The notes beneath the pieces are model-generated. The model ran no database searches. It had not been told where the DNA came from and saw only the letters and a program-made list of their open reading frames with translations. The position numbers were made by a program, and so were the translations under genes. From Physcomitrium patens (Eukaryota > Streptophyta > Bryopsida > Funariales > Funariaceae), in assembly GCF_000002425.4 (NCBI RefSeq), contig NC_037271.1, positions 8,027,838 through 8,091,837 of the forward strand: a stretch of DNA of 64,000 bases, in the 5' to 3' direction. Of this stretch, positions 5,100 to 61,200 are shown one piece after another; position 1 is the first letter of the stretch; the number at the start of each line of letters is the position of its first letter.

Positions 5100-5519
5100 T
5101 GTTAGGGACATATTCCTTAGAACTTTCTAGAGAGAAGTTTCTAGAACTTTCTAGAAAACAAGCCTCTGGAATCTTCTAGAAGAGAAGCCTCTGGAACCTT
5201 TTAGAGAGAAGTTTCTAGAAGCTTCTAGAAAAGAAGTCTTTGGAACCTTCTAGAAGAGAAGTTTCTAGAAGCTTTTAGAAAGAAATCCCCTGGAACTTTT
5301 TAGAAGCTTCCTAGTTAATAGAAGTAGCTCGAGAAGCTTCCTAAGTAGGAGTATATATAGGGATCGAGGCTGAAGAGTTCTTCAGTCTCGACAACACATC
5401 TCTTGGAGTTCTAGCTCAATTTTCTGGTGTTGTTCTTGTACTCATCTGTTTAATCTAGTTCTGCCACTTCTTCTTGAACTTCTTGTTAGATTTCAAGTCT
5501 GTATTTTGTGTCCGTGACA
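5100..5519 (+). repeat. 3' LTR of element A
   Basis: It begins TGTTAGGGACAT and ends TCCGTGACA, preceded by a purine-rich tract (about 5085-5099). U3 is made of GAA/TTC-rich tandem units, followed by TATATATA at 5352-5359 and a predicted start at A5384. It differs from the 3' LTR of copy E at only about 2% of sites. Confidence 0.93.
5120..5280 (+). promoter_or_regulatory. Heat-shock-element array in U3 of LTR A
   Basis: Two perfect runs of five alternating units GAA-nn-TTC-nn-GAA-nn-TTC-nn-GAA are seen at 5134-5156 and 5208-5230. Further shorter runs lie at 5120-5127, 5243-5255 and 5258-5280. The array ends about 70 bp before the TATA box at 5352. Trimeric HSF binds at least three inverted nGAAn units at this spacing. 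Heat-induced transcription is an inference. Confidence 0.75.
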
Positions 5520-8500: not shown

Positions 8501-9670
8501 AAAGCCATACTCTTTATTTTATAGTTGTATCTTTTTTTTAGTCAATGTTGAGTACTGTGCTTTTATTTTTCATACTATAAGTACAATCTATCTTAACAAT
8601 GATGAGTCTTTTTTTACTTAATAAAAAGTTTAAAATGTACTATATCAATTTTGATGTCTTTTATTTTCAAATATATGTATTAAAAATATATTTTTATTGC
8701 TATTAAATTATAAAAATATTAAGGCATATTTATAAAATTCTTAGATTAAAATTCATAAATCCAATTATTATACTTTACAACCAAGTCAATTCTTTGGTTT
8801 AATGTTTTGGAGATTGAATAATGTGAGTATTAATTTTTTAAATCATATTATAATTTATAAAAAAAATAGTTAATGAATATAGCATCATTTTACTTAATAT
8901 CAATTATAAGTTTTTGAAATTTTAAAATATATAGCATTACTGATTGATTATCTTATCACAAATTATAAATCTTATTGATTATAATTCAAATTATATCATA
9001 TGTTTTATACTTAGATAAAAAAATTCCAAAAAGGCCTCCAAATTATCCAATATTAGATCATATTATTCAAAAAAAGATAAAAAATATGATAAAATAAAAC
9101 TTAATAATAGTATTTTAATAAACTTGACTTGTGATTTTAAGGTTGAGTAGCTTTAGAATTGAAGTTCAATGACAAGTTGACTTAATTGATAAATCTTCAA
9201 AACTTTGATTTTATACTATCAAACTTTTTAAGCAAGACAACTCTTGGTTCTTTAATGCTTGAACAATGTTCTATTATATAAGAAGTAACATGATTTGATG
9301 TAGATTTTGAAGCAACTCTAATCATCTCTATATCATTGTTTCTTATTAATCTTGTCATTCTTTGTGGTAGTAAATTAAGTTGATACATTGCAAGGATTAA
9401 CTCTCTCATTTGTTCTTGTATTTGTACCATTGCACTCTTCATTTTAATAAGCTCTATAATGATAATACAATTAAAAAAAGATGTCTAATATCACTCAAGA
9501 TAAATAGAAAAGGAAAGTCAAGAACAAAAAATATTCTAAAAACTATATTAATTTAGAAGCAGATAATCCACAACTTTTGATATGCTTATATTTTATCAAG
9601 AGAAAGGAATAATATACTTTTAATCAAGAAAATTCAAAGCTTTGATATTGTAAGTAAATTCTTGTCAATT

Positions 9671-10173
9671 TACCAAAGATAAGAATTTAAAGATTTTTAA
9701 TAAATAAGAGAGATGTTTTTCAAAAAAGAATGATAAAATAAAAATAAATAAATATGTATATTTAAGAAAAAATCGGAATGGTTGTTAACAAAGATTAAGA
9801 AATTAGAAACTCTTGAAATTGAACCAAAAGCAAGGAAAGAATTGACAAGAGCGAGGAAGGCATCACTTTTATTTTTATATATAATATCTAAGTAAGAGCT
9901 ATGTGATAATATCTTATAATACTTTCAATACATGTACAACTTGTAAGACACATGTCTAACTTGTAAAACAAGTTTCTTATATATGTGCCACAAATCCAAC
10001 TTATACCACAAGTGGCTAATATGTGCAATACATGGCCAACTTATTGACCAAGTTTTTAATCTACCAATTATCTATAGATATTATAAAAGATATTATAAAA
10101 TTTATTTATTTTTATCTACTATCTATTTATATTATTTAGTTAATTATTAAAATAATTGTGGATGTTTGTAATA
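9671..10173 (-). repeat. 5' LTR of element F
   Basis: On the reverse strand it aligns with the family-B LTR, including the region round the TATA box and start (about 9,840-9,900) and the LTR start with 33 alignable bases ending at 10173. A decayed copy of the family-B post-LTR motif lies just left of 9671. Confidence 0.65.
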
Positions 10174-13619: not shown

Positions 13620-13815
13620 ACACAAATCCAAACTAAATTCTAATATTTCTTAGTCAAATCTTAATCAAATCTTAAGTAAATCCAAGTAATCTTAATGAAA
13701 TTTTAATTAAATTTTAACATATTTTAATCAAATCCTAATCAATCCTAAGTAATCCTAAGATATCCTAAAAATCCTAATCAAATCTTTATCAATCCTAACC
13801 AAACCCTAATTAGGA
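13620..13815. repeat. Degenerate telomere-like repeat tract
   Basis: Successive units of the type TCAAATCCTAA / TAATCCTAAG, related to the plant telomere unit CCCTAAA but with about 11-13 base spacing. The same kind of tract occurs at about 10,580-10,850 and 49,080-49,400. Confidence 0.6.
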
Positions 13816-17200: not shown

Positions 17201-17926
17201 CACCATATTTCGAGTTGATAATAATGAAACATGTGATTGTTTACCTGATGCATCAACAAGGACCAAAAAATAACGAAATGATTATGATATTGGATTAATA
17301 TGACCACAAATACCACCATGCAATCTTTCAAGCATTGGTGGTAATTCTTGTGGAAGTTTTCAAATTGAAGGCCGAGTAATCATTTTACCTTGCATACATG
17401 TACAACATAATTCCATAGAATCTATATCTGCAGGCTTTAAATTGTGTCCAATTATACATGGAATGATCTTTCTAAATAATGTGGATCTTGGATGTTCCAA
17501 TTGTCCATGCCAGAGAGAAACATGACTCTCTGAGATAGATGATGCAAAATTAAATATAATGGGAGGCCGAATCACAATTCGGTATAAACCATTTTCTGTA
17601 GCAAAAGCTTTTTTAACAACTTTATGGTTCTTTGTAAGAACCAAAACCTCTTTTTTATTTAAAGTGGCAGTCAAGAGGTGATAACCATTAGTACGCACAT
17701 CTCGATAGCTGATCAAACTTCGAGGTACTGAGGGTGCAAACATCGCATGTTTACATTTTATGATGGAATCCGCAAGTAATTTTATTATCATTGTGCCTTC
17801 TTGGAAACAAAATTTATTTGCTCCAGCCATGGTCATTATATTTTTAGTTTGCAAAGTTGAAGATTTTTCAATAAAAAATCGTCTATCTCGCAAGATAGTA
17901 TGTATTGTTGCAGAATCAATGAGTGC
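13976..17926 (-). mobile_element. Ty1/copia element D, partial
   Basis: This minus-strand copia reads from right to left. Protease comes first with IDSATIHT (about 17,360-17,926), followed by the CxxC of the GAG-pre-integrase region (about 17,390). Integrase with an ENGLTESF-like QNGLTESF block and a VFGCRAW block follows (about 16,300-17,330), then RT (about 15,270-15,980), RNase H ending in ADLFTKALP (about 14,455-15,260), a 3' untranslated part containing the usual copia rc(TTAATGAGGCAAC) and the LTR. The order PR-INT-RT-RH defines copia. The gag part and 5' LTR are absent: the element is cut at 17927 by LTR R. About eight to ten breaks. Confidence 0.9.
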
Positions 17927-18837
17927 TGTCGGGGTAGAGAGAATTTGCATCAAGAAAACGCTAGGCTTCTGGGTGTCACTTATTATTCAATTAAGCTTGA
18001 AAATAAAGAAAGTCCTAAGTTTATATATAATTTTTCTCTTTTGAATAAATATACCAAATACACAATCTTGAAGTAACCCACAACTTCCAAAATATGATAA
18101 AATCTTCTAAAACCTTGTTTATACTTATGTAGAGATTTTTCCGAACTTCAACACCTCATATCTCCTAATCTGACCGTCCAAACAAACTCAAATTTTACAT
18201 GAGGTACTGATGTATTCTTATTAACTTCTACAACAAAGTTCAACAGCAAATTCATGGTAAATCTTGAGATATCTTAAAAACCCTAACAGCCGCTTTAAAC
18301 CCTTATTTTTATACATCCACGTGCAATTTTCTTCATATGTCACAAAATATAAGCTCAAATGCCACGAAATTTGTATGTATAGCTTCTTAACACAAAAATT
18401 TACATTCTCCAAAAGTTTGAGCCAAAAATTCATCCGAATACTCAAGTTATGGCTATTACTACAAACAAAACCGCTTACTTACTGCCTTTGATTTGAAAGT
18501 GCTGCTTTCAACTCATAATGACTCCTTCATATAAACTCCAAAAGTAATAATTCTTTTATAAAAGATAGAGGCCTTGAAATCGCCGTTCCAGTCGCACCTT
18601 TTGATCTTCAAAAGCTATTGTAAAACTCCTCGTACTCTCAAAAGAGTAATAATACATCTTAAATAAACACCTTAACTTCAAACGGCTATAAATTTTTCAC
18701 CCTAACTCCAAATCCTCTAAATTTTGTATACAAATTATATCTCAAATCCTAAACTTTACAATCCTAGTTGTAATCTCCAAATGCTCTCTTTGAAGTCACC
18801 GAAACCCTTCCTAAGGTCACGCACAGCCTCCTCAAAG
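17927..18837 (-). repeat. LTR R, partial copy inserted in copia D
   Basis: It is the reverse complement of most of the 1,236-bp unit at 53,442-54,677; similarity runs from the TGTCGGGG edge to about 18,837. There it is cut by the LTR of B1, which is inserted in it. It has no coding capacity. Confidence 0.7.
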
Positions 18838-19399
18838 TGTCACAAACATAATCATGTATGCTAGTAATTACATATACAAATAGATAGAAGTAAGTAAAAG
18901 TAGGTAAAAGTAAGTTAATTCTATAGTATTTATTATGGAAGCTTCCTAGAAGCTTCATAGATGCTGCTTTGACTTCATACGTGTCTTTAATTCACTTTTT
19001 GGATTAGAAATGTGGTCAACAAGTTGGCCATGTGCCAAACATGTTGTTAGCTTGAAGATTAAGCTAACTATGTGGCCCACACATAGAAAAACTTGCCTTG
19101 TAAGTCAATGCATGTGTTCTACAAAGTCAACACATATTGGAGGTCCTATAGAACGTCGCCACTTAGCCCCTAGTTAGATAGTATATATAGAGACAAGAGT
19201 GAAGGCTTCTTCACTCTTGTCAACTCCTTTCTTGCTTCCAGCCTAGTTTCAAGGGTCTCTAGTTTTCTTGTCTTTTGGCAATAGCCATTCTAGTTTCTCT
19301 TTCAATATACATACTTATTTATTTATATTTTTTTTACCTTTCTTTGAGTGAAGGCTCACTTGTCTGAATTGTTTTTTCATCGAGTTCTTGTCCTTGATA
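18838..19399 (+). repeat. 5' LTR of B1
   Basis: 562 bp from TGTCACAAACAT to TCCTTGATA. TATATATA is at 19182-19189, the predicted start at A19213 and the post-LTR primer site at 19402-19412. Confidence 0.92.
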
Positions 19400-19412
19400 G
19401 ATTGACAAGAGT
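19213..19412 (+). promoter_or_regulatory. Self-primer (19213-19223) and primer-binding site (19402-19412), B1
   Basis: ACTCTTGTCAA at 19213-19223 starts 31 bp after the first T of the TATA box. Its exact complement TTGACAAGAGT lies at 19402-19412, two bases after the LTR end. TATCAGAGC, part of the usual initiator-tRNA-Met primer site, follows at 19423-19431. Confidence 0.75.
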
Positions 19413-24231: not shown

Positions 24232-24792
24232 TGTCACAGACATATTCATGTAAGCTAGTAGTTAAATATACAAATAGGTCGAAGTAAGTAAAAGTAGATA
24301 AAAGTAAGTTAATTTTATAGTATTTAATATAGAAGCTTCCTAGAAGCTTCATAGATACTGCTTTGACTTCATAGGTGTCTTTAATTGAGTTTTTGGATTC
24401 AAAATGTGGTCAACAAGTTAGCCATGTGCCACACATGTTATTAGCTTGAAGACCTAGCTAATAATATAGTCCACACGTAGAAAAACTTGTCTCGTAAGTC
24501 AAGGCATGTGTCCTACAAAGTCAACACTTATTGGAGGTCCTATAGAACATTGCCACGTAGCCCCTAGTTAGATAGTATATATAGAGACAAGAGTGAAGGC
24601 TTCTTCACTCTTGTCAACTCTTTTTTTGCTTCCAGTCTAGTTTCAAGGGTCTCTAGTTTTCTTGTCTTTTGGCAATAGCCATTCTAGTTTCTCTTTCAAT
24701 ATACATACTTATTTATTTATATTTTTTTACCTTTCTTTGACTGAAGGCTTACTTGTCTGAATTGCTTTTTCATCAAGTTCTTGTCCTTGACA
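24232..24792 (+). repeat. 5' LTR of B2
   Basis: 561 bp from TGTCACAGACAT to TCCTTGACA. TATATATA is at 24576-24583. A perfect 12-bp inverted repeat (GACAAGAGTGAA / TTCACTCTTGTC) straddles the predicted start at A24607. Confidence 0.95.
24576..24617 (+). promoter_or_regulatory. TATA box, predicted start and self-primer of B2
   Basis: TATATATA is followed 31 bp on by a C/A start dinucleotide at 24606/24607. The first 11 bases of the predicted transcript, ACTCTTGTCAA (24607-24617), are the exact complement of 24795-24805. Confidence 0.75.
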
Positions 24793-32803: not shown

Positions 32804-35262
32804 TCAAATTCGCCTAGACTTATTTGGAGGCTGGTAATGGCCAGGGTAACTAACGTTTGACTGCTCTTTCCTTCTGAGACCTTGTTGCTGTTGCTGCTGC
32901 AGCAGCACAGCTGGATTACCTCTCTGCGTATAAATACCTGCGCTAGAGTTCAGTCCGTGCATTCCCACTGGTGGATTAACAACCATGTTGTTTGAGTTTT
33001 GAACTTTGTGTTGTTGCTGCTGCATGTTAACATTCATAGACTGGTGCAGTTGGTTCGAGCCCCCCGACATACTTGAGGGGTTAGGCATCTGTGGAGGAGG
33101 TGGGGCAGTTGTTCCATCGAAGTCTGTTGAGTAATCCACGGGGCGTTGAGGATACGGCACTACCTGACAACCAATAACAGCAACATATATGTGAGCACCA
33201 GAAAGTAGCAATGCAAGAAAGCAGGTGACGTAGATGAGTAATCAAGTTTATGTATATGTGGAAACACATTTCTTGTTCTATATCAAGTACGTGTTTGTTA
33301 TCGATCTCAAAAGTGCTAATCATCCTCTGAAGATTTTGCGTGCTAACCATGAGAGGCCTGAAGAGAGAGCCCAGAAAACCCAGTCAATTGGAAAGGCAAA
33401 TTGACGAAAAAATTCCCAGGTTGATGAGGGCCTAAACTATTTCAGACTCGACTAAGAATCATTCCTGCTTGACATACCAAAAGTCGAACGGTGGGATCAA
33501 CGTGGAAAATCCAACAATTCAATTAGGAAGGACAAGGAAGTTAGAAGTGAGAAAGAATTAGGATTTGGGCATTACACTTCTGTCAACTGTTCAAGGATGG
33601 GGAAGAGAACCTGAATCGTTTAGCTGTTTTCAGATATTATGATCCAAAACGTAAAGCTAACGTTGACAAATATACGCCGAGAAGCGTCACCACACACTCG
33701 GAATTTCAAAATAGGTGAAGAAAAGGCCAAAACAACCAGAAAACTAAGAGAAATCTCAGAATAACTCCAACTCACTCCATCAACGCTACACAATAACAGT
33801 ACTTAAAAAAATATACAATATTATGAATTCATATTACCTTGTCCGCCGCATTGGGTGGAACAAGAGAATTACGGCCTGGAATAGGATCATTTCGAAAATA
33901 ATCGTGCTCTAAGGCTTGCGATGCCGTGATCCGTTTGATGGGATCGTACTCCAGCATCTTCGACAACAAATCAAACCCTGGACTCTTCGGTGGCAACTGT
34001 ACAATACTGTAGAGGCCTGGGTTATCATACTTTCGAGTCTGGATATTTTGACGGTTACTCGCCCAATGTGGTAGAGTGAGAAGTGTCGGCCACTTATCCG
34101 CAGTAGGGTTGCCAAGGACTTTAAAGATTTTGTCCAACTGATCCAACTGGAACGGATTGGGACTGCTTTTGTCCTCTATTCCCTAACAAAAATTACATGA
34201 TCAACACAAAATTCGAATACTTAGCAAATTGTACCCGTTTCAAAAAAGATCAGTTTTCAAGCTCAAGATGCTAACCGAAGTGTACTGCAGAAACAAGAGA
34301 TGAAGCTCGATGGAGAGTACCTGAAAAAGGGGTTTAAGAGTAAGAAGCTCCGCAAAGATACACCCAACTGCCCACATATCGACAGCGCTTGTATAATGCC
34401 TACTTCCAAGTAGAAGCTCTGGAGCCCTGTACCAAATGGTAACCACCACACCATTTTCACTCAAGGACCGCAAAGGCGCCTGAAAGATTCGAGCCAAGCC
34501 AAAGTCCCCGATTTTTACTAATCCTTGCTCATCGCCTTCTCCCATCACCAGGATGTTGGAGGGTTTCAAATCACGGTGAATAATCCAATTGCTATGAAGG
34601 TAGTTCAAGCCATTGAGAATCTGCCAAAGCAAAGACTTCACCGTGTACGCGTTGATACTGCAGTTTATCTTCTCCCGATGATGTCGAATAATCTCGTAGA
34701 GATCGTGCTCAGCGTAATCGAACGCAAGGTACAACGACATGTCACCATGGTTGATGTGAACATTCACGAGCTTCACAATGTTTTCATGTATACACTCTCG
34801 CAGCAACATAATCTCCCGGATTGCTGTCGGGGAAACGCCATCGCCCTCCTTTGACTGCTTGAACTTCTTGATCGCAATTTTAGTGCCCCTGCTATAAGCA
34901 CCAAGAGACAACAATGTCATCAACCTACGAAAAACAGCTCAAACACGTGACGAAGGCATGGCATGCTTCCTTTTCTCTTGAAATGGAAACCCTAAATGAA
35001 TTGTGGTAATTGATGCACAAGCTTGTGCCCAAAATTTACTAGTCCCAACAACGGCACAAACCCTCCGCACTTATTGAATGTCATTCAAATTCTCAAATAG
35101 ATCTACGGAGTGCCCACAACCATAAACCCACCTGTGCGCAGGCTCTTTGCTCTTCGCAAGATACACCAGCCCGTACGTTCCTTCTCCAATCTTCCCAACT
35201 AAATCATACTGCTGCAACCACTCCGGGCGCGCCCGCTGCTTGCCGGATCCATCCGCCACCAT
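32804..35262 (-). CDS. CDKE1: Cyclin-dependent kinase E / CDK8 (Mediator kinase), four exons
   Basis: The predicted nuclear serine/threonine kinase of the Mediator kinase module, partner of cyclin C, acts on RNA polymerase II transcription. Minus-strand exons: 35262-35132, 34888-34321, 34182-33838, 33163-32804. All introns are GT-AG. Total 1,404 bp, 467 residues (Arabidopsis CDKE1 is about 470). Visible: P-loop GEGTYG (26-31), catalytic K51, cyclin-binding SPTAIRE (63-69, plant form of CDK8 SMSACRE), HRDLKPSN (148-155), DFG (172-174), WYRAPE (196-201). The T-loop lacks the usual activating threonine, as in CDK8. The tail is Q-rich and ends NKSRRI, like Arabidopsis NKSRRL. The start MVADGSGK was chosen by homology; an in-frame ATG 48 codons upstream (35406) gives an unrelated extension. 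It looks intact and is the only confident host gene here. Confidence 0.95.
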
Positions 35263-36544
35263 CGCTAAGCCCAGTCTGCTTATCACTAAAACCCAAATCT
35301 TCAACCCCCAATCTTCAAACCTCAGAGACGCAACTTCCCTCCAAAACAGATACCAGCCTTCACCTCCATTCCAGGAGGTTCCGTCATCATCCCGCCATAT
35401 CCACAACTACGATGAATCCAGACACACAAGAACCCTCTGAAACATCCTCATAGCCTATCCCTGCATCTCATCACAGCGTTCACGTTTCAACATGACAGAG
35501 TCTGCTAAGCTTGCAATTCGAATCGTAGCGGAATCCATTACGACGGTTGAATAGTGCCCACCCTGAAACTCAGCCAAGACAACGGTCGCAGCAACGCGTT
35601 GAATGATGCTTTCCTTGGTTCTCTCAACAAGGAACTAATTTCACACAGACGTTGAACGAGATTGATTCCTAGTAACGTTACCCCAATCACAGACTCATGC
35701 ACATGTTTCAACCACCCCCGCGATAAAATACCTTGGCAAGTGCACCAGACGCATGCGAATGGCCAGCGCTCGTGATGCCAATGGAGGTGGAATCATTTAC
35801 CTTTTCTACCAAACTATGATTCTTTTTCTCGAAAACTTATTTCCACTTAGGAAACAAACTAGGGTTACCAAGGGTTGCTGACAAAACTGACTGAAATGGA
35901 TTGGATGAATGATTACAACAGTCACATGATGCACATTTGGTGCTTCGATGATTGATTGTGCATCGATCCCAATGTCGACTTGCGAAATTCAGGATGAAAG
36001 CGTTCATCGGACCATGAAAAAAATATGCACATGAAGTTGAGCACTTGCCAAGCCACTTTGAAACAAAACTCATTTTCAGCCTGCGTCTGAGTACCTGATG
36101 AGTCTAGCAGTGGATGCCGTAGAGAGAAGGACAAGACTTACCAGAATTCTTTGCACATCACCAATTGTGTCAGGACTCCAGCTTTCAGATACGAGTAGGT
36201 AAATTGAACATTGAAGTACTGTACTGGCGAAATGCGAAGTTAGTGTTAGGTGACGCAGTCGGAAATACTCCTCAACAGGTAGCCTAACGCGACCGCAAGT
36301 TTTCAGAGGATTTGTCTGTATGGTTTCCTGGAAAGGAATGGGAATGGATTGAGGTACCTCCGAGAGCATCCGATTTTATTACAATTTTGTTACTGGACAA
36401 GTGGACCCTAAACAGTATTCAATAATGAACTGGAGTATTCAGAGACGTCCGGGCTTATCAAGAGCACACCATTGTGGTGAGATTATAGCACCAAGGACAG
36501 AGGCAATCTCGGCTTCTGGCTAACGTGTGTCGTTGAAACCGGCT
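35263..36544. other. Gene-island spacer: CDKE promoter/5' UTR side
   Basis: Moderate-GC sequence between two minus-strand gene models. It should hold the CDKE 5' UTR and promoter. An open minus-strand stretch at 36076-36369, with a possible acceptor upstream and a GTAAGT donor near its end, could be an exon of the upstream gene or chance. No TATA box is singled out. Confidence 0.4.
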
Positions 36545-37440: not shown

Positions 37441-38666
37441 AAGAATTTGGATAAGTTTGAATTGTTTGGTCCATATATTTGCTTTTAGTAGCTTTAAGTA
37501 GGTGAATTCATTTTTGCACTAAGGCCTTAAGGCCTAGTTGGATTGATTTTGTCCATTCATATATTTGTTTTGGTTGAACAATCCATGTTAGAGTTCAATA
37601 GGGTCTTGACTAGCAACCAAGGTGCAAGACAAACAAAGAATCTTAAGTGGCGATTAGCCATTGAAAAAACCATATGTTGAGAATCTACATGTTACTTATT
37701 ACAAATGTAATACCATTGAGAAATAAGTTGTTTCCAATGCATATTAATTGTTTTTAAGGTTAAAACATTCTTAAAAACAATCAGTAATTTTAATCATATA
37801 AAAAATATTGTTCAAATGAATACCAGTATAAATAACACCTAAATTATGCTTCAAGAAGCATCTAAACTTACTCTCACTCCAAAACATTATTGAATTTGGC
37901 ATAACTATCAAAGTATTATTTTATAAATCATTTCTAAATCTAAATTGTTGTTTTAAGATGTTGTTCTTGTACCAAATAGTATGTATAACATAATGCATCT
38001 CAGATTATTATTATATCAATTATTGATATAATGAAAAATCTAAAAATAACTACTGATTTAATTAAAAATTATATTAATTAAAATATTTTATAATTCTATT
38101 ATTATAACATATTATAAAATTACAATTATTTATGAAAAAATATTATTATAATATTTTATAATTGTAATAAATTATTTTTATTATCATTATATTCATTGAT
38201 AATATATTATGGTATCATTAACTTATTATTATATTATATTATGACATTAATCTTATATTATATAATTATATTTTATAATTATAATATAATATAATTTTTT
38301 AAAAATACTATTGTAAAAAATTAGCATATTATATAAAGCTAATAGATTATAATAATGATTTATTATTATATAATGGTCTCATAAATAATTATTCTATAAT
38401 TTTATTATTATGTATATTATTATATTTTTTTCATATATACTAATATTTTAATATTTTATAATATATTTATAACATCATTCTAATTTTTTACTAGTTAAAT
38501 AATTATAATAAAGATAAATATATACTTTAATTACTTTAGATATTAATTTTAGCCAATTGATTAATGTCAAAAATTTATTGAAATTATGATAATAATTAAA
38601 AAATTATTTTATTTAAGAATCATTCTTTATGGCTTCTAAAAAAATCCTATTATATTATAATACATG

Positions 38667-42251: not shown

Positions 42252-42256
42252 CCTTG
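42252..42256. repeat. Target-site duplicate, left of E
   Basis: CCTTG, repeated at 48422-48426 immediately after the 3' LTR of E. Confidence 0.85.
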
Positions 42257-42274
42257 TGTTAGGGACATATTCCT

Positions 42275-42520
42275 TAGAACTTTCTAGAGAGAAGTTTCTA
42301 GAACCTTCTAAAAAACAAGCCTCTGGAACCTTCTAGAAGAGAAGCCTCTGGAACCTTTTAGAGAGGAGTTTCTAAAAGCTTCTAGAAAGGAATCCCTTGG
42401 AACTTTCTAGAAGCTTCCTAGTTAATAGAAGTAGCTCGAGAAGTTTCTAGAAACTTCTAGAAAGGAAGCCTCTGGAACCTTCTAGAAGCTTCCTATTTAA
42501 TAGATGTAGCTCGAGAAGCT
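42275..42520 (+). promoter_or_regulatory. Heat-shock-element array, 5' LTR of E
   Basis: Many TTC-nn-GAA words. A perfect five-unit run GAA-TTC-GAA-TTC-GAA with 2-bp spacing lies at 42440-42462, with shorter runs near 42,290-42,310 and 42,395-42,415. It lies upstream of the TATA box at 42534. Confidence 0.75.
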
Positions 42521-42533
42521 TCCTAAGTAGGAG

Positions 42534-42576
42534 TATATATAGGGATCGAGGCTGAAGAGTTCTTCAGTCTCGACAA
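42534..42576 (+). promoter_or_regulatory. TATA box, predicted start and self-primer of E
   Basis: TATATATA at 42534-42541; a C/A start dinucleotide at 42565/42566, 32 bp after the first T. The first 11 predicted transcript bases AGTCTCGACAA (42566-42576) are the exact complement of 42704-42714. Confidence 0.75.
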
Positions 42577-42703
42577 CACATCTCTTGGAGTTCTAGCTCA
42601 CCTTTTTGGTACTGTTCTTGTACTCATCTATTTAATCTAGTTCTACTACTTCTTCTTGAACTTCTTGTTAGATTTCAAGTCTGTATTTTGTGTCCGTGAT
42701 AGT

Positions 42704-42737
42704 TTGTCGAGACTACACTAACTTGAGATATCAGAGC
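42704..42737 (+). promoter_or_regulatory. Primer-binding site of E and partial tRNA-Met site
   Basis: TTGTCGAGACT (42704-42714) lies two bases after the 5' LTR and is complementary to the predicted transcript start. A partial initiator-tRNA-Met site TATCAGAGC lies at 42729-42737, without the leading TGG. Confidence 0.7.
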
Positions 42738-45700
42738 TAGTTCTTTCTTAGTAGAGTGTGGATTACCCCTCTACTTGAAGATATACTAGCATTTTTTAGA
42801 GGTTGCGGATTACCTTCCTCTAAACTGATACTTCTTCTGTTACAATATTGGAGTCTTATTCTTCTTGGAGAAAATGTATTACCCTTCTTCTTGAAATTCT
42901 TAAGGCGTTTTATAGGTTGTGGATTACCCTCCTATAAACCAATATTGCCTCTTGTAGAGTCATTTTTGTCCTTCTTTTAGAATGGCCGGAGGTCAAGACA
43001 TTAGTATGACAGAAAGTTCAGAGTCTAAGTTAGATACTATTATGAATGCCCTCGCTACGTTATCACAAAGAACTGCAGAGATTGAAGGAGTGGTGGCAAG
43101 GCTTCATAATGATGGAGTATCTGGGATAGCACAATCTAAACTATACTAGCCTCAAATTTCGGCACTTGGAGAAACAACTTTACCTCAGGTTCGACAAGAA
43201 CCACTAGTTCTACAATATAAAGAGCCTCGAGTTAGCCTTCCAGATAAGTTTGATGGAACACGTTCCAAGTTTCGAGGATTCATCAATCAAATCAGGTTGA
43301 TAACAGTTTTACAGCCCGAACGATATCCAACGGAGGAGTCACATGTTGGACTTGTTGGAACCTTACTTACGGGACAAGCTCTATCATGGTTTGCTCCTTT
43401 GTTTGAGAAACGATCATCCATATTAAACAACTTCGAAACCTTTTTGGAAGCATTTGCGGAAGCATTTGGTGAACACGATAAGGTTCGATGGGCTACAACA
43501 AAGATCCGGTCGCTACGACAGGGGGATGCGTTCTACATCAGTCTATGCTTTGGATTTCAGGCAATTAATATGCGACATTAATTGGGATGAAGAAGCGTTG
43601 ATGAGTCAATTCTATTGGGGTTTAAGAGATGATGTGAAGGATTTGCTGTTAACTCTTTCTGATCCACGAACGCTCAATGAAGCCATTAGCCAAGCTGTGA
43701 AGTGCAATAATCGCCTATTCCAACGTCGCCAAGACCAACGCTCAAGACAACATACAATTCGCCATGCTCCAACTATGTTGACAAGCGATGTGAATTCGCA
43801 TTCAGAGGTGGAAGACATGTAAATTGATGCGGTACGTATCAAATCTCTTACTATAGAAGAAAAAAAGCAACGTATGGAGGAAAATTTATGCTTGTATTGC
43901 GGTGGAGAAGGCCACAAAGTCGGAAACTATCCCAAAAAGTAAAATCGAGGCATAGTCAAGACTAGGGGAGTATTTGTTCAGGAAAACGAGGATGCCCAGC
44001 CACAGTAGGAACTGTGCGGCTGGACAATGAAATATCCCAACAACAATCAGGTTCCTTTCTTTCTGCCCAACCTGCACTTTAATTTACAATCCCTTTGTTT
44101 ATCGGCCCTCAAAAACTGAGAACCTTAGAACTACTAGACTCAGGAGCATCTGCTTGTTTTTTAGACGAAGAATTTGTAAAGCGTCATGAGATCCCTTTAG
44201 TACAAAAATCAAAACATGTTCATGTTGAGGTCATAGATGGGCAACCTTTATTATCTAGTAGCATCACCCATGAATCAAAACCTATAGAAGTAACGTTTAA
44301 AGACCATAGTAGTCATATTATTTTTAATATTATTAGAACCCCATCAAATCCTATTATTCTTGGTCTTTCTTGGTTGGAAAAACATAATCTATTGATAGAT
44401 TGGAGGTTGCGGAAGATGACTTTTCCCACAAAACCACCCAAGAAAAAACCTAGTAAAAAACCTCGAAAAAAGAAATCCTTATTCATTGGAGCAAGAGCGT
44501 TTATAAGATCATCTAAGGAAGGCACTCCATTTGTCATTTATGCGGCTCCAACTACCGAGGAGAAGATCTCAACAGCAAGTATACCGGAGCAATATAAAGA
44601 TTTTGAAGACGTGTTTCAAAAGAAGAACGCCGACATACTACTAGAACACCGACCATATGATTGTGCCATAGACTTGCAAGAAGGAGCACAACCACCTTTT
44701 GGCCCAATCTACAATCTATCACAAATGGAGTTGGCAGAGTTACGAAAGTACATCGACGAGAATCTAGTCAAGAACTTCATTTGTCATTCAAAATCATCAG
44801 CTGGAGCACCCATCTTATTTGTGAAGAAGAAAGATGGATCATTACGGATGTGTATGGACTATCAAAGCCTCAACAAGGTAATAAAAAAAAATCGTTACCC
44901 ATTACCCTTAATTTCTAGTCTCTTAGAACAACTTGGACATGCGAAGATCTTTACAAAAATTGATCTAAGGGGAGCTTATAATCTCATACAAATCAAGGAA
45001 GGAGATGAGTGGAAGACAGCATTCCGTACAAGGTATGGTCATTTCGAATATAATGTCATGCCTTTTGGTCTTACCAATGCTCCAGCGGTTTTCCAACATA
45101 TGATGAATGACATCTTTCGAGAATACCTCGACAATTTTGTTCTCATCTACTTAGATGATATTCTAATATTCTCTAAAAACGAGGAAGAGCATGAGGAGCA
45201 TGTTCGTTTGGTCTTGGAGAAACTACGCAAGCGAGGACTATATGCCAAATTAGAAAAGTGTTTATTTCACCAGACGGAGATGGAATTTTTGGGGTTCATT
45301 GCGACTACAGAAGGTTTGAAGATGGACCCCACGAAAGTAGAAGCAATCATGTCTTGGGAGGTTTCGAAGACGGTTAGAGACATACAATGCTTTCTTAATT
45401 TTACTAACTTCTATCGGATCTTCATCAAGAATTATTCTCAAGTTGCTGCTCCTCTCACTCGATTAACATGCAAGGATAAGTTGGAGTGGGGACCTTTGGC
45501 GGAGAAGGCGTTTCAAGATTTGAAGACAGCATTTACTACAGCTCCAATTTTGGTACATCCAGACTTTACAAAGGCCTTCTATTTAGAAACTCATGCTTCA
45601 AATTTTGCTTTGAGAGCTGTGCTTTCACAAATGAGTGAAGATAAGAAGCTCCATCCAGTTGCATTCTATTCTCGAAAGTTCTCTGCTGCTGAAATCAATT

Positions 45701-47599
45701 ATGAGATCCACGATAAGGAACTTCTTGCTATAGTGGATTCTTTCGAAGAATGGCATCACTTTCTTGAAGGAGTTGCACATCCAGTAACCGTATATACGGA
45801 TCACAAGAATTTGGAGTATTTCATGACGGCTTGAGTTTTAAATCGGCATCAAGCTCGATGGAATATGTCGCTATCTAGATTTGATTTTGTTATCACTTAT
45901 CGATCTGGAAGGCAGCAAGGACTATCCGATGCTTTATCAAGGAGATCGTATCTTGCACCAAAGGCTGGAGAAGCAGCGTTTGATCAACAATATACAACGT
46001 TATTGAAGCTAGAGAGATTTCAACTTTGTGCTACTATTGTATCATTTGATGTTGACTTCCTAAACTAGGTACGTGCTATGACCATTAAAGATTCAGTAGC
46101 CATTGATATCAAGCAACGTACCAATGACAACAAGTTCAAGGTGGAGGGAGATCTTTTATACTTTGAAGAGCGATTGTACATTCCAAAAGGACTAGCACGA
46201 CTCCGAGTTCTTCAATCTCGCCATGATTTTCCAGCTGCGGGACATTTTGGATTCAATGAGACCTTGGAGCTTATTTCCCGAGATTTTTGGTGGCCCCAAA
46301 TGTGGAAGGATGTGAAAGATTTTGTCCTCTCTTGTGACATCTGTTCAAGATCTAAGAATCCTCGGCATCGCCCTTATGGACTTCTACAGCCATTGCCAAT
46401 TCCATGTCGACCATGGTCTTCAATTTCTATGGACTTCATCACAGACTTGCCATCATCAAACTCATTTGACAGCATCTTTGTCGTGGTAGATCGGCTTACA
46501 AAAATGGCACACTTTGTTCCTTGTAAGAAGACATCGTCCAGTGAAGTCACAGCAAGACTCTTTCTCGATAATGTGTATCAATATCATGGACTACCAGATG
46601 ATATCATATCAGATCGAGGTACCCAGTTCATGTCAAAGTTTTGGAGATCTCTCTTTGGGATATTGAAGGTGGATATCAAGCTTTCTTCAACTTTTCATCC
46701 TCAAACTGATGGCCAAACAGAACGGGTGAACCAAGTCTTAGAGAAGTACTTACGATGCAGCATCAACTATCAGCAAGACGATTGGACTGCATATCTATCG
46801 CTAGCCGAGTTTGCATATTAAAACACCCTCCATGCGTCGACTCAACAAACACCATTCTTTTCCAACTATGGGTATCATCCAAAGCTTGATTTATTGAGTC
46901 TGTCAACAAATAACAATCCAGCAGCTGAAGGATTTACGAAGCAAGTATCAGAGCTTCAAACTATGTTGAAGCTTCAATTACAATCCGCTCAAGAATCCTA
47001 TAAGATGTCTGCAGATAGATTTCGGAATCAAGCACCTACTTTCAAAGTTGGAGACAAAGCCTGGCTTCTTTGACGAAATATCAAGACCAAGCGACCATGT
47101 GATAAGTTGGACTATCGAAGATTGGGACCATTTATCATCCAGAAGTAAATTAATCTAGTGGCATACCGGCTGGAGTTACCGGCTTCTATGAAGGTACATC
47201 CAGTCTTTCATGTTTCTCTATTGGAACCTTATCGAGAGTCATCTTTTCCTAGAAGAGTAGAATGTCCGCCACCTAGTATTGAAATCGAGAACCATGAAGA
47301 ATATGAGGTTGAAAAGGTATTGGATTCACGGCAAAGGTGGGAAAAGTTAGAATATCTTGTTCATTGGTGCGGCTATGACATTAATGAGCGAACGTGGGAG
47401 CCAGCTGAAAAGCTTGCAAATGTGCCAGAAAAGGTACAGGAGTTTCATCAACGACATCCCGATAAACCTAAATCAATTCGATGATAGCTTCTTTCTGAAG
47501 CTTGTTCTCCCAACATTATAAGAAAATGAGAGAGCACCAGCAAAATTCATAGTTGATGTAGTTATTTTCTCCAAGATAGATCGTAGTTTGGTCTTTTGA

Positions 47600-47953
47600 T
47601 ATGGATAGTCAAGAGATAGATACTATGCCAGTCAGAGCATCGCAACCGAGTAGCTCACGAAGGCGACCCCGAGATGAAGAACTACATGTACTACGATGAC
47701 GACAGAAGATACCGAGTAACTGATCACTGGTGATCGTATTTGAGATCGAGCCTGCTTACGATGGTTAGCCAGAAGGCGTGTTTGCAAGACAATTTCACAA
47801 TGAGGACACGGAAGTTCATGCTTGGTCAGAAGTCGAAGGCGTGGGCCACTATCGTTGGCTTCAAGGGTCGATGAACTATTTACCTCGTGAACAACAGCTG
47901 GAGTTCATAGCAGAAGTTATGCGACGGATCTTCATTTTCTTGCGTTGGTACTG
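47600..47953 (+). pseudogene. Extra frame after the chromodomain, E
   Basis: Counterpart of 4699-5052 in A, starting MDSQEIDTMPVRASQPSS and with the GHYRWL block. It is broken in this copy. Unknown function. Confidence 0.55.
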
Positions 47954-48001
47954 ATCAACAACATTGCTTCTCAGAGACCTCGAAGCTAAAGGAGGGGGTG
48001 A

Positions 48002-48421
48002 TATTAGGGACATATTCCTTAGAACTTTCTAGAGAGAAGTTTTTAGAACCTTCTAGAAAATAAGCCTCTGGAACCTTCTAGAAGAGAAGCCTCTGGAACC
48101 TTTTAGAGAGAAGTTTCTAGAAACTTCTAGAAAGGAAGTCTTTAGAACCTTCTAGAAGAGAAGTTTCTAGAAGCTTTTAGAAAGAAATCCCCTGGAACTT
48201 TTTAGAAGCTTCCTAGTTAATAGAAGTAGCTCGAGAAGCTTCCTAAGTAGGAGTATATATAGGGATCGAGGCTGAAGAGTTCTTCAGTCTCGACAACACA
48301 TCTCTTGGAGTTCTAGCTCAATTTTCTGGTGTTGTTCTTGTACTCATCTGTTTAATCTAGTTCTGCCACTTCTTCTTGAACTTCTTGTTAGATTTCAAGT
48401 CTGTATTTTGTGTCCGTGACA
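48002..48421 (+). repeat. 3' LTR of E
   Basis: 420 bp, ending TCCGTGACA and followed by the CCTTG target duplicate (48422-48426). A perfect five-unit heat-shock-type run lies at 48110-48132. It is closer to the 3' LTR of A (about 98% identical) than to its own 5' LTR. Confidence 0.95.
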
Positions 48422-48841
48422 CCTTGAATAAATATCACATGATTAGACAAAGTCTTTCACTACCTTCCACATTTATAGCCACTAAAAAACTCTAGATATA
48501 AGTTCTAAAGTATTGTTATATCCAAAATATCTAGCCACTAAAAAATCATGACATGCTTATAGAACATGTAAACATGCTTCTCTTTTTGGAATGTATAGGT
48601 ATCGTTCAAAATAGAATAGGCTATTTTTGAACTTAAACTTAGAAGCATCATGAGACTTAGAAGAAAGATTCTTGATATCATGAACAAGAGGATCAAAGGA
48701 CATATTTGATTGAATTTGATTGACAAGAATTGAATCAATATTGATTTCATTGCTTGAAGATGAAAGTGCTCCAATTTCAAGAAAATTATTCTTTATTAAT
48801 AAAAAAGTGAGTCTCTTTCTTTTAGTATAAGATAAGAACAT

Positions 48842-50250
48842 TGTCGTAATACGTGAAGTCTTGTTTGAGAATGCACCGGATACCTGGTTGTGAAAGATAA
48901 AAGAAAATTACAACAAAAGGTCCTAACAATGCAATAGTATTATAGAAAAATTACAATTAAACGTTAAAAATTATAAACAAAAATTAAACAAGCTCAATTA
49001 AATTATATTGAAGTTATAAAAGAAACACAAGGAAATCCTAAAGAAATATAAAAGAATATTAGAGAAAACTTAGTCAAACCTTAACAAAAATCTAAATAAA
49101 TCTTGAATTCTAACCAAACCCTGATCTTGATCCAACCTTAATCAAACCCTAGACAAACCCTAAATCTTAAACATACCCTAATCAAATCTTAGACAAATCC
49201 TAATCTTAACAAATCCTAATCAATTCCAAACCCTAAACAAATCCTAGTCAAACCCTAGTCAAATCCTAACTCTAAATCCTAACCAAATTCTAATCCTAAC
49301 CAAATCCTAAATCCTAAACCAAATCCTAACCAAATCCTCATCCTAAATCCTAATCAAATCCTAATCCAAATCAAACCCTAATCAAAGATTTAAAATTTAA
49401 ATAACTAAAGATTGAACCGTTGATTCTAATTCAAAATTTGCACACTTCTTGGAATTTAAGTTAGAACCAGTATACAAATTTTGAAGAAAATCACACTTAC
49501 CAATTAGTCAATGACCTCAAAATTCCGCTTAGATGTCGGCCAACCTCTCCTTCTCTAATGTGATGCTAAACTTCCAGTGCCAATATCTCCTTGTTCCACC
49601 ATTCAATTGATTCCAAATTTTACTTACATATAGGAAATCAAGTCTTCTACTGATAAAATCAAAAATCTCTCCAATCCAACTAGTAAATTGCTAGATATCT
49701 AAGAAAACCTTACTGGTCCTCAAAACCCTAAATCTCGAGATCTTAGCCTACAAAAACCTTCATATGTATTGATCTAGCCATTCGATTGACTTCAAATCTC
49801 TTACACACATTCACAACAAGCATATCAATAAGTTTCTAAATTTTCACCTATAAAAATGCTACAAAAGACACGAAATCCAAAAATTTGTAAACTGGTTTTA
49901 TTTCTCAAAGATCTGAATTCACAAAGAACATCACTCGCATTGAAAATCCCTCAAAAATCCAATACTGATCCAAACAACACGAAATTACCTCTCAAAAATC
50001 CCTCCACAAGTCTTCTCTCTAATTCAACTCTCCAATTTTTCAAAGAACCCTTGAGTTGCCATCAGAGTGCGGTTTTGTGCCTCAAGGTCTGATTTCGACC
50101 CAGGTTCATAACTGGTCTTCTTTAATTTTTCTACCCTTTGACTAATATCTACTTTTCCAAGATAATTTGCTACAATATTTTTGAAGTGAGATCTTCAAAA
50201 CATGATATTTTCTTCACCCTTTTCCTTGTCAGCTGTGTTACATCACGACA
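48842..50250 (-). repeat. Solo LTR X (about 1.4 kb) inserted in G
   Basis: 1,409 bp bounded by TGTCGT...ACGACA, a perfect 6-bp terminal inverted repeat. It splits G between RNase H and integrase, and G reads on at both edges with at most a 4-5-bp imperfect duplication. It has no coding capacity, so a solo LTR is the simplest reading. The start in its own orientation matches LTR Z at 56,494. Confidence 0.75.
49080..49400 (-). repeat. Telomere-like degenerate array inside LTR X
   Basis: About 25 units of the kind AAATCCTAACC / CAAACCCTAAT, including several exact CCCTAAA or CCCTAAT words. Confidence 0.75.
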
Positions 50251-57638: not shown

Positions 57639-58201
57639 TATCATGGACATACTCATGTAAACTAGTAATTCTAAATAAAAATAGGTAGAAGTAAATAAAA
57701 ATAGATAAAAATGAGTTAATTCTATAGTATTTGATGTGGAAGCTTCCTAAAAGCTTCATAGATGTTGCTTTGACATTATAGGTATCTTTAATTGATTTTT
57801 TGGATTCAAAACGTGGTCAACAAGTTAGCCATGTGCCACAGATGTTATTAGCTTGAAGACCAAGCTAACAATGTAGTCCACACGTAGAAAAACTTGTCTC
57901 GTTAGTCAAGGCATGTGTCCTATAAAATCAACACTTATTGGAGGTCCCATAGAACGTCGCCGCATAGCCCTTAGTTAGATAGTATATATAGAGACAAGAG
58001 TGAAGCCTTCTTCACTCTTATTAACTCCTTCTTTTGCTTCCAGTTTAGTTTCAAGAATCTCTAGTTTTCTTGTCTTTTGGCAATAGCCATTCCAATTTCT
58101 CTTTCAAATATACATATTTGTTTATTTATATTTTGTTACCTTTCTTTGAGTGAAGGCTCACTTCTTTGAATTGCTTTTTCATCGAGTTCTTGTCCTTCAC
58201 A
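57639..58201 (+). repeat. 5' LTR of B3
   Basis: About 563 bp, starting at the equivalent of TGTCACGG (here TATCATGG) and ending TCCTTCACA. The primer and primer-site pair is partly decayed in this copy. Confidence 0.88.
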
Positions 58202-61200
58202 GATTGAGAAGAATATATCTACAATATCAGAGCTTTGTCTAATCTTGATTAAGAAAGGATTACTCATTTTTCTTGATAAGATGTAAGCATATTAGAAGTT
58301 GCGGATTTCCTTCTTCTAAACTAATATTATCCTTAGTATTTTCTTTGTTCTCAAGTCCTCTCTTCTATTTGTCTTGAGCGATATTAGACATCTTCTCTTT
58401 TCTAAGTGTTATCATGACAAAACTTATTGAAATGAAGAGTGTAATGGCACAAATGCAAGAACAATTGAGGGAGTTAATGCTTACGATGCATCAACTCAAT
58501 TTACCACCACAAAGAGCAACAAGATTGGCAGAAAAAGAAGATATAGAAATGGTTGGAGCTACTTCAATATTTGCACCAAATCATGTCCTTTTTCTTATGC
58601 TGGAATGCCCTTCCAATGTTAGAGAACCAAGAATTGCCCTATCCGAGAAGTTTGATGGTACCAGATCCAAGTTTAGAGGATTTATCAATCAAGTGTAACT
58701 TGTGATTGAACTTCAACCCCAAAGCTATCTAACTCCAAGATCGCAAGTTAGATTCATTGATACGCTTCTTTCAGGTTCAGTACTATCATGGTTTTTATCT
58801 TTTCTTGAACGATGAGATCTAATATTGGATAATCTAGAAGCTTTTTTGGCAGAGTTTTGATCCATGTATGGAAAACATGATGCAATTCATGTTGCAACTA
58901 ATAAGATCCGTACTTTATGATAAGGCAAACAATCAATAACATTGTATACTTCACAATTTTGACAACTTGCAACTGATATCAAGTGAGATGATGTTGCACT
59001 TATTAGCCAATTTCTCTATAGATTATAATATGAAGTAAAAAAATTAATGCTCAACTTACCTGATCCTCAAACATTGAGTCAAGCAATTGACTTTGCAATG
59101 AAATATGACAATCGCCTTTTTGAATTTTGATTTGAAAATTGTATAAGAAGACCTCAACATTACTATAATTCAATGGTAATACCAATATCTCTTCAATACA
59201 TACATTCGGAAGTAGAAGATATGCAAATTAATGCAGTATGTTTCAAACCTCTTACTGAGCAAGAAAAGACTGGTCGTCGTCAAGAAGGATTATGTTTATA
59301 TTGTGGAAAACCAAAGCACACTGCTCAACATTATCCAAAGAAATGACGCAACGACAAATTGAGGAGTATAGCTATGAAAGAAGACAATATAACAGAAAAC
59401 GAGCTTGTCCAGCTACAATAGAGACCGTGCGGCTGAAACCTTGCACAACATCTAATGAAGGTCCTATTCTCTCCTGAGAGCCCTCTCCTTATTTTATATT
59501 AAATATTATTTTAGGACCTAAACACTACAAAGCCTCTGCCTTGTTAGATTCAGGAGCCTCAGCATGTTTCTTAGATGAAGAATTTACTAAAAAACATAGC
59601 ATATCTTTAGTAAAGAAAACTAAACCTGTTCATGTAGAAGTCATAGATGGTCTTCCATTGTCTTCTGGAGATATTATTCATGAAACCCTTCCTATAGAAG
59701 TAATAATCAATGATCATAATAGCTTTGTAGTATTTAATATTATTAGATCTCCCTCTAATTCAGTCATTTAAGGTTTATCGTGGTTAGAAAAATATGCCCC
59801 TCAAATAGGTTCGATTTCTCGAATTTTTACTTTCTCTAAAAGTATAACTAACAATGCAATTAATCAAATACAGAGTCATAAGTCCTATTCAATTAAATAC
59901 GTGTTTAGAAGTGCAAAAGTTTTCTTGTATGCTGCTATAAAAGAATCACCATATATTATTTATGCCACACTCATTTTTATTGGTGAAATGACTTCACGTC
60001 ACATTCCAAGCCAATATCAAGAATTTCAAGATGTATTCAAAAAAAAGAATGCGGATACACTCCCTGAACATAATCCCTATGATTGTTCAATTGACCTTTA
60101 AGAAGGAGCACAATCGCCATTCGGACCAATCTACAGTTTATCATAAAATGACTTGACTGAACTCAAGGAGTATATTGAAGAAAATCTAGCCAAGAATTTC
60201 ATATGCTATTTTAAATCTCACACAGGAGCTCCAATTCTATTTGTGAAGAAAAAAGATGGATCATTACGGATGTGTGTTGATTATCGAGGACTCAACAAGA
60301 TTACCATCAAGAACAGGTATCTACTACCTTTAATATCTAGACTTCTTGATCAGCTGAATTAAGCTAAGATCTATATACAAATAGATCTCGAGGGAGTATA
60401 CAATCTAGTATGCATCAAAGAAGGAGATGAATGGAAGACTGCATTTCGAACTAGGTATGGACATTTTGAATACAACATCATGCCTTTTGAACTTACAAAT
60501 ACACGAGCAGCTTTTCAACATCTAATGAATGATATTTTTTGAGAATTTTTGGACGATTTTGTAGTCTGTTATCTAGACGACATCTTGATCTATTCTAAGA
60601 ATCCAGAAGAACATGAACTTCATGTTCGTCGTGTGTTACAAAAATTAAGAGATGCAGGACTCTATGTCAAGATAGAAAAGTATGTATTCCACACTATTCA
60701 AGTTGATTTCTTAGGATACATCATTTCAAATGATGGACTTATGATGGATCCTAAAAAAGTTCAAACTATTATAGATTGGAAGATCCCAAAAAACGGTAAG
60801 AGATATCCAATGTTTTTTGGGATTTTCCAACTACTATTGGATCTTCATCAAGGAGTTCTCTCGAGTTGCAGCTCCACTTATACGTTTGACTTATAAAGAC
60901 AAACTCCAATGGAATCAAAAAACGGAAGTTACTTTTGAATCTTTAAAGACAACGTTTTTTTCTGCACCAATCTTGTATCGTGTTGATTTTTTCAAAGCAT
61001 TCTTTATGGAAACAGATGAATCAGACTTTGCTCTGGGTACAGTTTTATTACAAATGGGAACAGATGGCAAACTACATCCAGTAGCCTTTCATTCAAGAAA
61101 ATTCTCAGCAGTAGAAATCAATTATGAGATCCATAACAAAGAACTTCTTGCAATTGTAGATTCTTTTCAAGAATGGCATCATTATCTAGAAGGCGCTTCT

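What the first reader, a model, noticed from the sequence alone, without database searches (positions are those of the whole stretch)
42534..42714. Tf1-like self-priming layout in a plant chromovirus, family A
Seen: the 11 bases starting at the predicted transcription start (AGTCTCGACAA, 42566-42576; 32 bp after the first T of the TATA box, with C at -1 and A at +1) are exactly complementary to the 11 bases lying two bases after the 5' LTR (42704-42714), where the minus-strand primer must bind. Known: Tf1 of fission yeast primes with the first 11 bases of its own mRNA, and self-priming has been proposed for several fungal and vertebrate chromoviruses; plant Ty3 elements normally use initiator tRNA-Met. 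Inference: this plant family self-primes. Length, spacing to the LTR and position at the start all agree with Tf1.
Basis: partly seen in the sequence, partly recalled or inferred. Interest (0 to 1): 0.92.

Follow-up and report, generated by a model that had tools for sequence, protein, structure and literature searches.

The report
Self-priming moss retrotransposon, known kind
A moss jumping gene appears to start copying itself into DNA with the first eleven letters of its own RNA instead of a borrowed transfer RNA; this was already predicted for its group, but here two related families carry different eleven-letter pairs that still match, next to a conserved hairpin that may take part.

Summary
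AGTCTCGACAA (42566-42576) starts 32 bp after the TATA box and is exactly complementary to 42704-42714, two bases after the 5' LTR; a target-site duplication fixes the element's ends. A second family in the window has a different exact pair in the same places, with both sides changed at three of eleven positions. Patterns leaving both 11-mers free find 272 (A) and 791 (B) copies in the window's genome, reversed controls 0. Self-priming is the best explanation. The surprise is smaller than claimed: the host is a moss (closest to Physcomitrium patens), the RT falls with fungal and vertebrate elements, and Neumann et al. 2019 already predict self-priming for most of the moss and club-moss Tcn1 clade. 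Possibly new: (1) a U3/R hairpin whose left arm, outside the transcript's 5' end, follows the 11-mer between families and would mask its 3' copy; (2) a remnant initiator-tRNA site 20-24 nt downstream of the LTR. Against: 10 of 10 copies with one PBS variant did not co-change; one fold leaves the 11-mer unpaired; a Tf1-type 'pretzel' RNA was not supported; no 5'-end data.

The parts
42257..42701 (+). 5' LTR of element A2
   Evidence: LTR alignment and CCTTG duplication
42252..42256 (+). target-site duplication CCTTG, left
48422..48426 (+). target-site duplication CCTTG, right
42534..42541 (+). TATA box
   Evidence: sequence; 32 bp to the 11-mer
42545..42574 (+). U3/R inverted repeat: left arm in U3, right arm contains bases 1-9 of the self-primer
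   Evidence: folds of 3' LTR copies and pair counts
42566..42576 (+). putative self-primer, first 11 nt of the RNA
42704..42714 (+). putative primer-binding site, 2 nt after the LTR
42729..42737 (+). remnant of an initiator tRNA-Met primer site (TATCAGAGC), CCA-pairing bases changed
44095..45834 (+). open frame with protease, RT and RNase H domains of A2
   Evidence: Pfam
46078..46821 (+). open frame with integrase domains of A2
   Evidence: Pfam
47158..47484 (+). open frame with a chromodomain
   Evidence: Pfam
48002..48421 (+). 3' LTR of A2; 11-mer at 48286-48296
5100..5519 (+). 3' LTR of element A1; 11-mer at 5384-5394
24607..24617 (+). family B1 self-primer ACTCTTGTCAA
24795..24805 (+). 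family B1 primer-binding site TTGACAAGAGT
19213..19223 (+). family B3 self-primer
19402..19412 (+). family B3 primer-binding site
58014..58024 (+). family B2 self-primer place, decayed
58204..58214 (+). family B2 primer-binding place, decayed
9842..9852 (-). family C self-primer place, decayed (GCTCTTGTCAA)
9658..9668 (-). family C primer-binding place, decayed (TTGACAAGAAT)

Best explanation
Families A and B are moss chromoviruses of the Tf1/Sushi (Tcn1) kind that self-prime. The RNA starts at the A of the 11-mer; those 11 nt pair with the site two bases after the LTR; the element's RNase H cuts after nt 11 and RT extends the freed 3' end into U5 (start site, cut and extension are inferred, not shown). 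Because plus-strand strong-stop DNA copies the primer, each round can rewrite the PBS from R, which locks the two together without selection on both (inference from the standard reverse-transcription pathway).
For: Exact 11-nt complement at the expected place. LTR ends fixed by a duplication and by 3' LTRs that end at GACA in A1, A2 and B1, so synthesis must start beside the 11-mer. Family B: different 11-mer, changed on both sides at positions 2, 6 and 8. Genome: 408 exact PBS 18-mers, control 0; paired patterns 272 A and 791 B, controls 0; R exact in 85 of the 100 listed A copies and 75 of the 100 listed B copies (counted by eye). In 28 of 28 loci taken from the 408 by exact PBS, R lies 131-145 nt before the 18-mer, 23 exact and 5 with one change. 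Primer:PBS pair probability for R2-R9 is 0.77-1.0 in A2, B1 and B3 over three lengths; R1, R10 and R11 lower, 0.52-0.96. RT apart from two seed-plant and one algal sequence at 100/100, together with fungal and vertebrate elements. Self-priming already predicted for the clade.
Against: No capped 5' ends or primer-linked cDNA seen. The single MFE fold of A2 42566-42760 leaves the 11-mer unpaired. Ten of ten family-B copies with a changed PBS position did not change R (it can still pair as G.U). Decayed copies: B2 0-0.05; C 0.16-1.0 over R3-R11 by the length folded, near 0 at R1 and R2. No convincing Tf1-like flanking duplexes; of six tests the lowest was 23 of 500 shuffles as strong.
Confidence: 0.86

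Rival explanations
1. Initiator tRNA-Met primes at the TATCAGAGC site 20-24 nt downstream, and the 11-mer pair has another role.
For: TATCAGAGC is exact in the leaders of A2, B1, B2 and B3, and one base off in C; a recalled 16-nt tRNA end pairs at -15 to -19 kcal/mol in the four, -8.6 in C.
Against: Two or three of the three bases that should pair with the tRNA CCA end are changed in each of the five copies (AGA, TAA or CAA for TGG); the 3' LTRs of A1, A2 and B1 do not contain the 20-24 nt that would become LTR if synthesis began there.
Confidence: 0.05
2. The 11-mer pair is an RNA 5'-leader fold used for packaging, dimerisation or translation, and the primer is another RNA fragment.
For: The pair closes a 149-200 nt domain with high probability in A2, B1 and B3. 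tRNAs other than tRNA-Met, and tRNA halves, were not searched beyond the absence of TGG.
Against: It does not explain why one side sits exactly two bases after the LTR, the place set by the primer, nor the start exactly at TATA+31/32 in both families.
Confidence: 0.07
3. Chance plus shared ancestry of two related families.
For: A and B are related and could share the layout by descent; an 11-nt match somewhere in the LTR is not impossibly rare, 39 and 49 of 20000.
Against: The two families differ at three of 11 positions and each difference is matched on the other side; conservation in hundreds of copies.
Confidence: 0.02

Closest known systems
Tcn1 clade of plant chromoviruses (mosses, club-mosses; Neumann et al. 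2019, PMC6317226, passages and section 13 read)
   Same: Moss host, chromodomain, RT on the fungal/vertebrate side; self-priming predicted for most members
   Different: What I read gives no R/PBS sequences, hairpin or tRNA remnant. A Selaginella member (SM-Tcn1, PMC2864245, passages read) was reported with neither tRNA nor self-priming evidence.
Tf1 of fission yeast
   Same: First 11 nt of the RNA complementary to the PBS; cut between bases 11 and 12 in Tf1 (PMC7175516, passage read)
   Different: The Tf1 three-duplex 'pretzel' (PMC10085805, passages read) is not supported here
tRNA-Met-primed plant chromoviruses (most plant chromovirus clades other than Tcn1)
   Same: A remnant of the same tRNA site is present downstream
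   Different: No tRNA-complementary site at the LTR edge; RT apart from the two seed-plant sequences tried

Membership tests
Tf1/Sushi (Tcn1 clade) chromoviruses | RT groups with fungal and vertebrate elements, apart from seed-plant chromoviruses | tested here: met
   24-row tree, support 100/100; rows are A1, A2 and 22 of the 120 listed hits chosen by me; no named Tcn1, Tf1 or Sushi reference was in the tree, so the clade name rests on host groups and literature
Tf1/Sushi (Tcn1 clade) chromoviruses | Chromodomain with aromatic cage | tested here: met
   Pfam Chromo E 4.4e-16; Y, W, Y at the cage places by my reading, no alignment made
Tf1/Sushi (Tcn1 clade) chromoviruses | About 11 nt at the RNA 5' end complementary to the PBS at the LTR edge | tested here: met
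   that the 11-mer is the RNA 5' end is inferred from TATA+31/32
Tf1/Sushi (Tcn1 clade) chromoviruses | Transcript starts at the first base of the self-primer | not testable with these tools
   TATA+31/32 and a C/A start agree; no 5'-end data
Tf1/Sushi (Tcn1 clade) chromoviruses | RNase H cut between nt 11 and 12 | not testable with these tools
   none
Tf1-type pretzel RNA | Two further duplexes between PBS-adjacent sequence and R/U5 | tested here: inconclusive
   Shuffles as strong, after PBS and before PBS: A2 68 and 497 of 500; B1 272 and 23 of 500; B3 163 and 154 of 500; the forced fold cannot show such pseudoknots
tRNA-Met-primed plant chromoviruses | tRNA-complementary site directly after the LTR | tested here: not met
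   No site at the LTR edge in A2, B1, B2, B3 or C; remnant 20-24 nt away

The most novel reading that the evidence does not exclude
A three-part lock: the U3/R hairpin hides the 3' copy of the self-primer so that only the hairpin-free 5' copy can anneal to the PBS. When R changed between families, the PBS followed through reverse transcription and the U3 arm followed through selection; the lineage replaced tRNA priming, whose dead site is still visible.
Probability: 0.3. Interest if true: 0.62.

Novelty: new member of a known kind. Interest (0 to 1): 0.42.

Why it matters
It gives base-level evidence, including compensated differences between families, for self-priming in land-plant chromoviruses, a prediction in the papers read here. 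These families are in a laboratory moss with hundreds of copies, so the start site and primer can be tested with ordinary RNA data. A dead tRNA site beside a working self-primer would show how one priming mode replaced the other.

Tried and rejected
Tried without result: viral contigs for related loci (none confirmed); Rfam at gathering scores and a tRNA scan of the window (none); de novo scan for the layout (matches of 9 nt or more) in 20 sampled 10-kb stretches plus the window, 264 kb: 12 edge-filtered hits, four of them A or B copies and no clear third family, against 12 in the reversed control; unfiltered 133 against 139. Tests for Tf1-like flanking duplexes gave nothing convincing.

Rejected: a seed-plant host. 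Within-family covariation is not claimed: for the one PBS variant looked at, R was unchanged in 10 of 10 copies, and 30 of the 40 variant R copies among the 200 listed carry only C-to-T or G-to-A changes (by eye). The paired table of R and PBS per copy could not be completed because listed matches are cut at 80 letters and the reverse pattern did not complete. Pair counts rest on 47 rows: 9 from the window and 38 loci fetched by PBS sequence (28 exact A, 10 B variants), so the 43 rows with a PBS lean on that choice; L037 gave no row, and no row was lost to the limit of two changes in R.

Full report
OBSERVATION. The element is one insertion, 42257-48421, with the duplication CCTTG on both sides; the 3' LTRs of A2 and A1 end CCGTGACA, so the 5' LTR end at 42701 is secure, and the complement starts after a two-base spacer. 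The 11-mer starts 32 bp after the first T of the TATA run. A match of 11 nt or more anywhere in the LTR with offset 0-6 arose in 39 of 20000 resamplings for A2 and 49 of 20000 for B1, before counting its exact place.

HOST AND CLADE. Exons at 32804-35406 (minus) encode a CDKE kinase 97% identical to a Physcomitrium patens protein over the 453 aa typed, so the host is a moss. The genome held for the window has 470 Mb in 101 contigs. Separate open frames of A2 carry gag-like, protease, RT, RNase H, integrase and chromodomain matches. In a 24-row RT/RNase H tree A1 and A2 fall with fungal and vertebrate elements and unnamed environmental proteins, apart from Tanacetum and Closterium at 100/100. 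No named Tcn1 reference was in that tree. Novikova et al. 2010 (PMC2864245, passages) place P. patens elements with Tcn1-like elements, and Neumann et al. 2019 (PMC6317226, passages and section 13) say most elements of that moss and club-moss clade lack tRNA sites and were predicted to self-prime. The kind is therefore known.

SECOND FAMILY. Family B in the window (5' LTR copies B1, B2, B3) has the same layout with ACTCTTGTCAA and TTGACAAGAGT, starting at TATA+31, two bases after the LTR (B1 and B3). It differs from A at positions 2, 6 and 8 and each change is matched in the PBS. B1 and B3 are exact; B2 and the older copy C are decayed. One search used a wrong LTR end for B2 (its 'none' for B2 should be ignored); searches use the right one.

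GENOME. The A PBS 18-mer occurs 408 times, control 0. Patterns that leave R and PBS free find 272 A and 791 B copies, controls 0; these are lower bounds. In the first 100 listed of each, counted by eye, R is exact in 85 and 75. Of 51 listed A copies that fall within the range listed, 40 have the exact 18-mer (by eye). The 28 loci fetched by the exact 18-mer, of 408, have the R 11-mer upstream, 23 exact and 5 with one change. Against tight within-family covariation, ten family-B copies with G at one PBS position kept the common R in 10 of 10; the change leaves a G.U pair, and two of the ten PBS have further changes.

HAIRPIN. In both families the 11-mer is the right arm of an inverted repeat whose left arm lies in U3, between TATA and start. 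In four 3' LTR copies folded as RNA in three lengths of context, R1-R6 are paired with U3 at probability 1.0. Over 47 rows standard pairs form in 44, 45 and 43 at R2, R6 and R8, with both sides differing between A and B, and one subfamily (four rows) has an A-T pair replaced by G-C in the inner stem, outside the primer. Weak points: at R9 only 18 of 47 pair (A has a mismatch), and 27 of 47 have G.U at R3. The U3 arm is in the 3' part of the genomic RNA only, so the hairpin could hide the 3' copy of the primer; that role is inference. A DNA-level role of the palindrome is not excluded. Paper searches showed no description of such a U3/R hairpin in the listings and passages seen; one passage (PMC3601003) says that some chromoviruses use hairpin priming, without detail. 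The primary Tf1 papers tried are not held, and those on Sushi and Tcn elements were not looked up.

tRNA REMNANT. TATCAGAGC, the body of the initiator tRNA-Met site (recalled), lies in the leader in A2, B1, B2 and B3 and with one change in C; two or three of the bases that would pair with CCA are changed in each. The LTR boundaries exclude priming there. It suggests an ancestor that used the tRNA, or a retained second role; neither is shown.

RNA FOLDING. Primer:PBS pairing at R2-R9 has probability 0.77-1.0 in A2, B1 and B3 over three lengths, but the single best fold of A2 42566-42760 leaves the 11-mer free, while that of B1 pairs it. For C the value over R3-R11 falls from 0.9-1.0 to 0.16-0.18 as more leader is included; for B2 it is 0-0.05. 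Further duplexes as in Tf1 are not supported.

VERDICT. Self-priming is very likely. It extends a known prediction with exact sites, between-family compensation and genome counts; the hairpin and the dead tRNA site are the parts worth following.

Noticed in passing
42257-42701, 48002-48421, 5100-5519: The two LTRs of A2 differ at 30 of 420 aligned sites plus a 25-bp indel, while its 3' LTR differs from that of the separate insertion A1 at only 8 of 420. LTRs of one insertion should start identical; gene conversion is possible.
   Followed up: partly
32804-35406: Split exons of a CDKE (CDK8-type) kinase gene between the retrotransposons, used to identify the host.
   Followed up: partly
49088-49397 and 13648-13810: Degenerate tandem stretches of AAATCCTAATC / AACCCTAA type, telomere-like to the eye.
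   Followed up: no
38061-38465: A stretch matching its own reverse complement at about 67%, with overlapping direct repeats.
   Followed up: no
14455-17953: Minus-strand open frames that look like a decayed copia-type element, by eye only.
   Followed up: no
44095-45834: The closest RT relatives (80-90% identity) come from unnamed JGI and ENA sequence sets, so close relatives are recorded outside this assembly.
   Followed up: no
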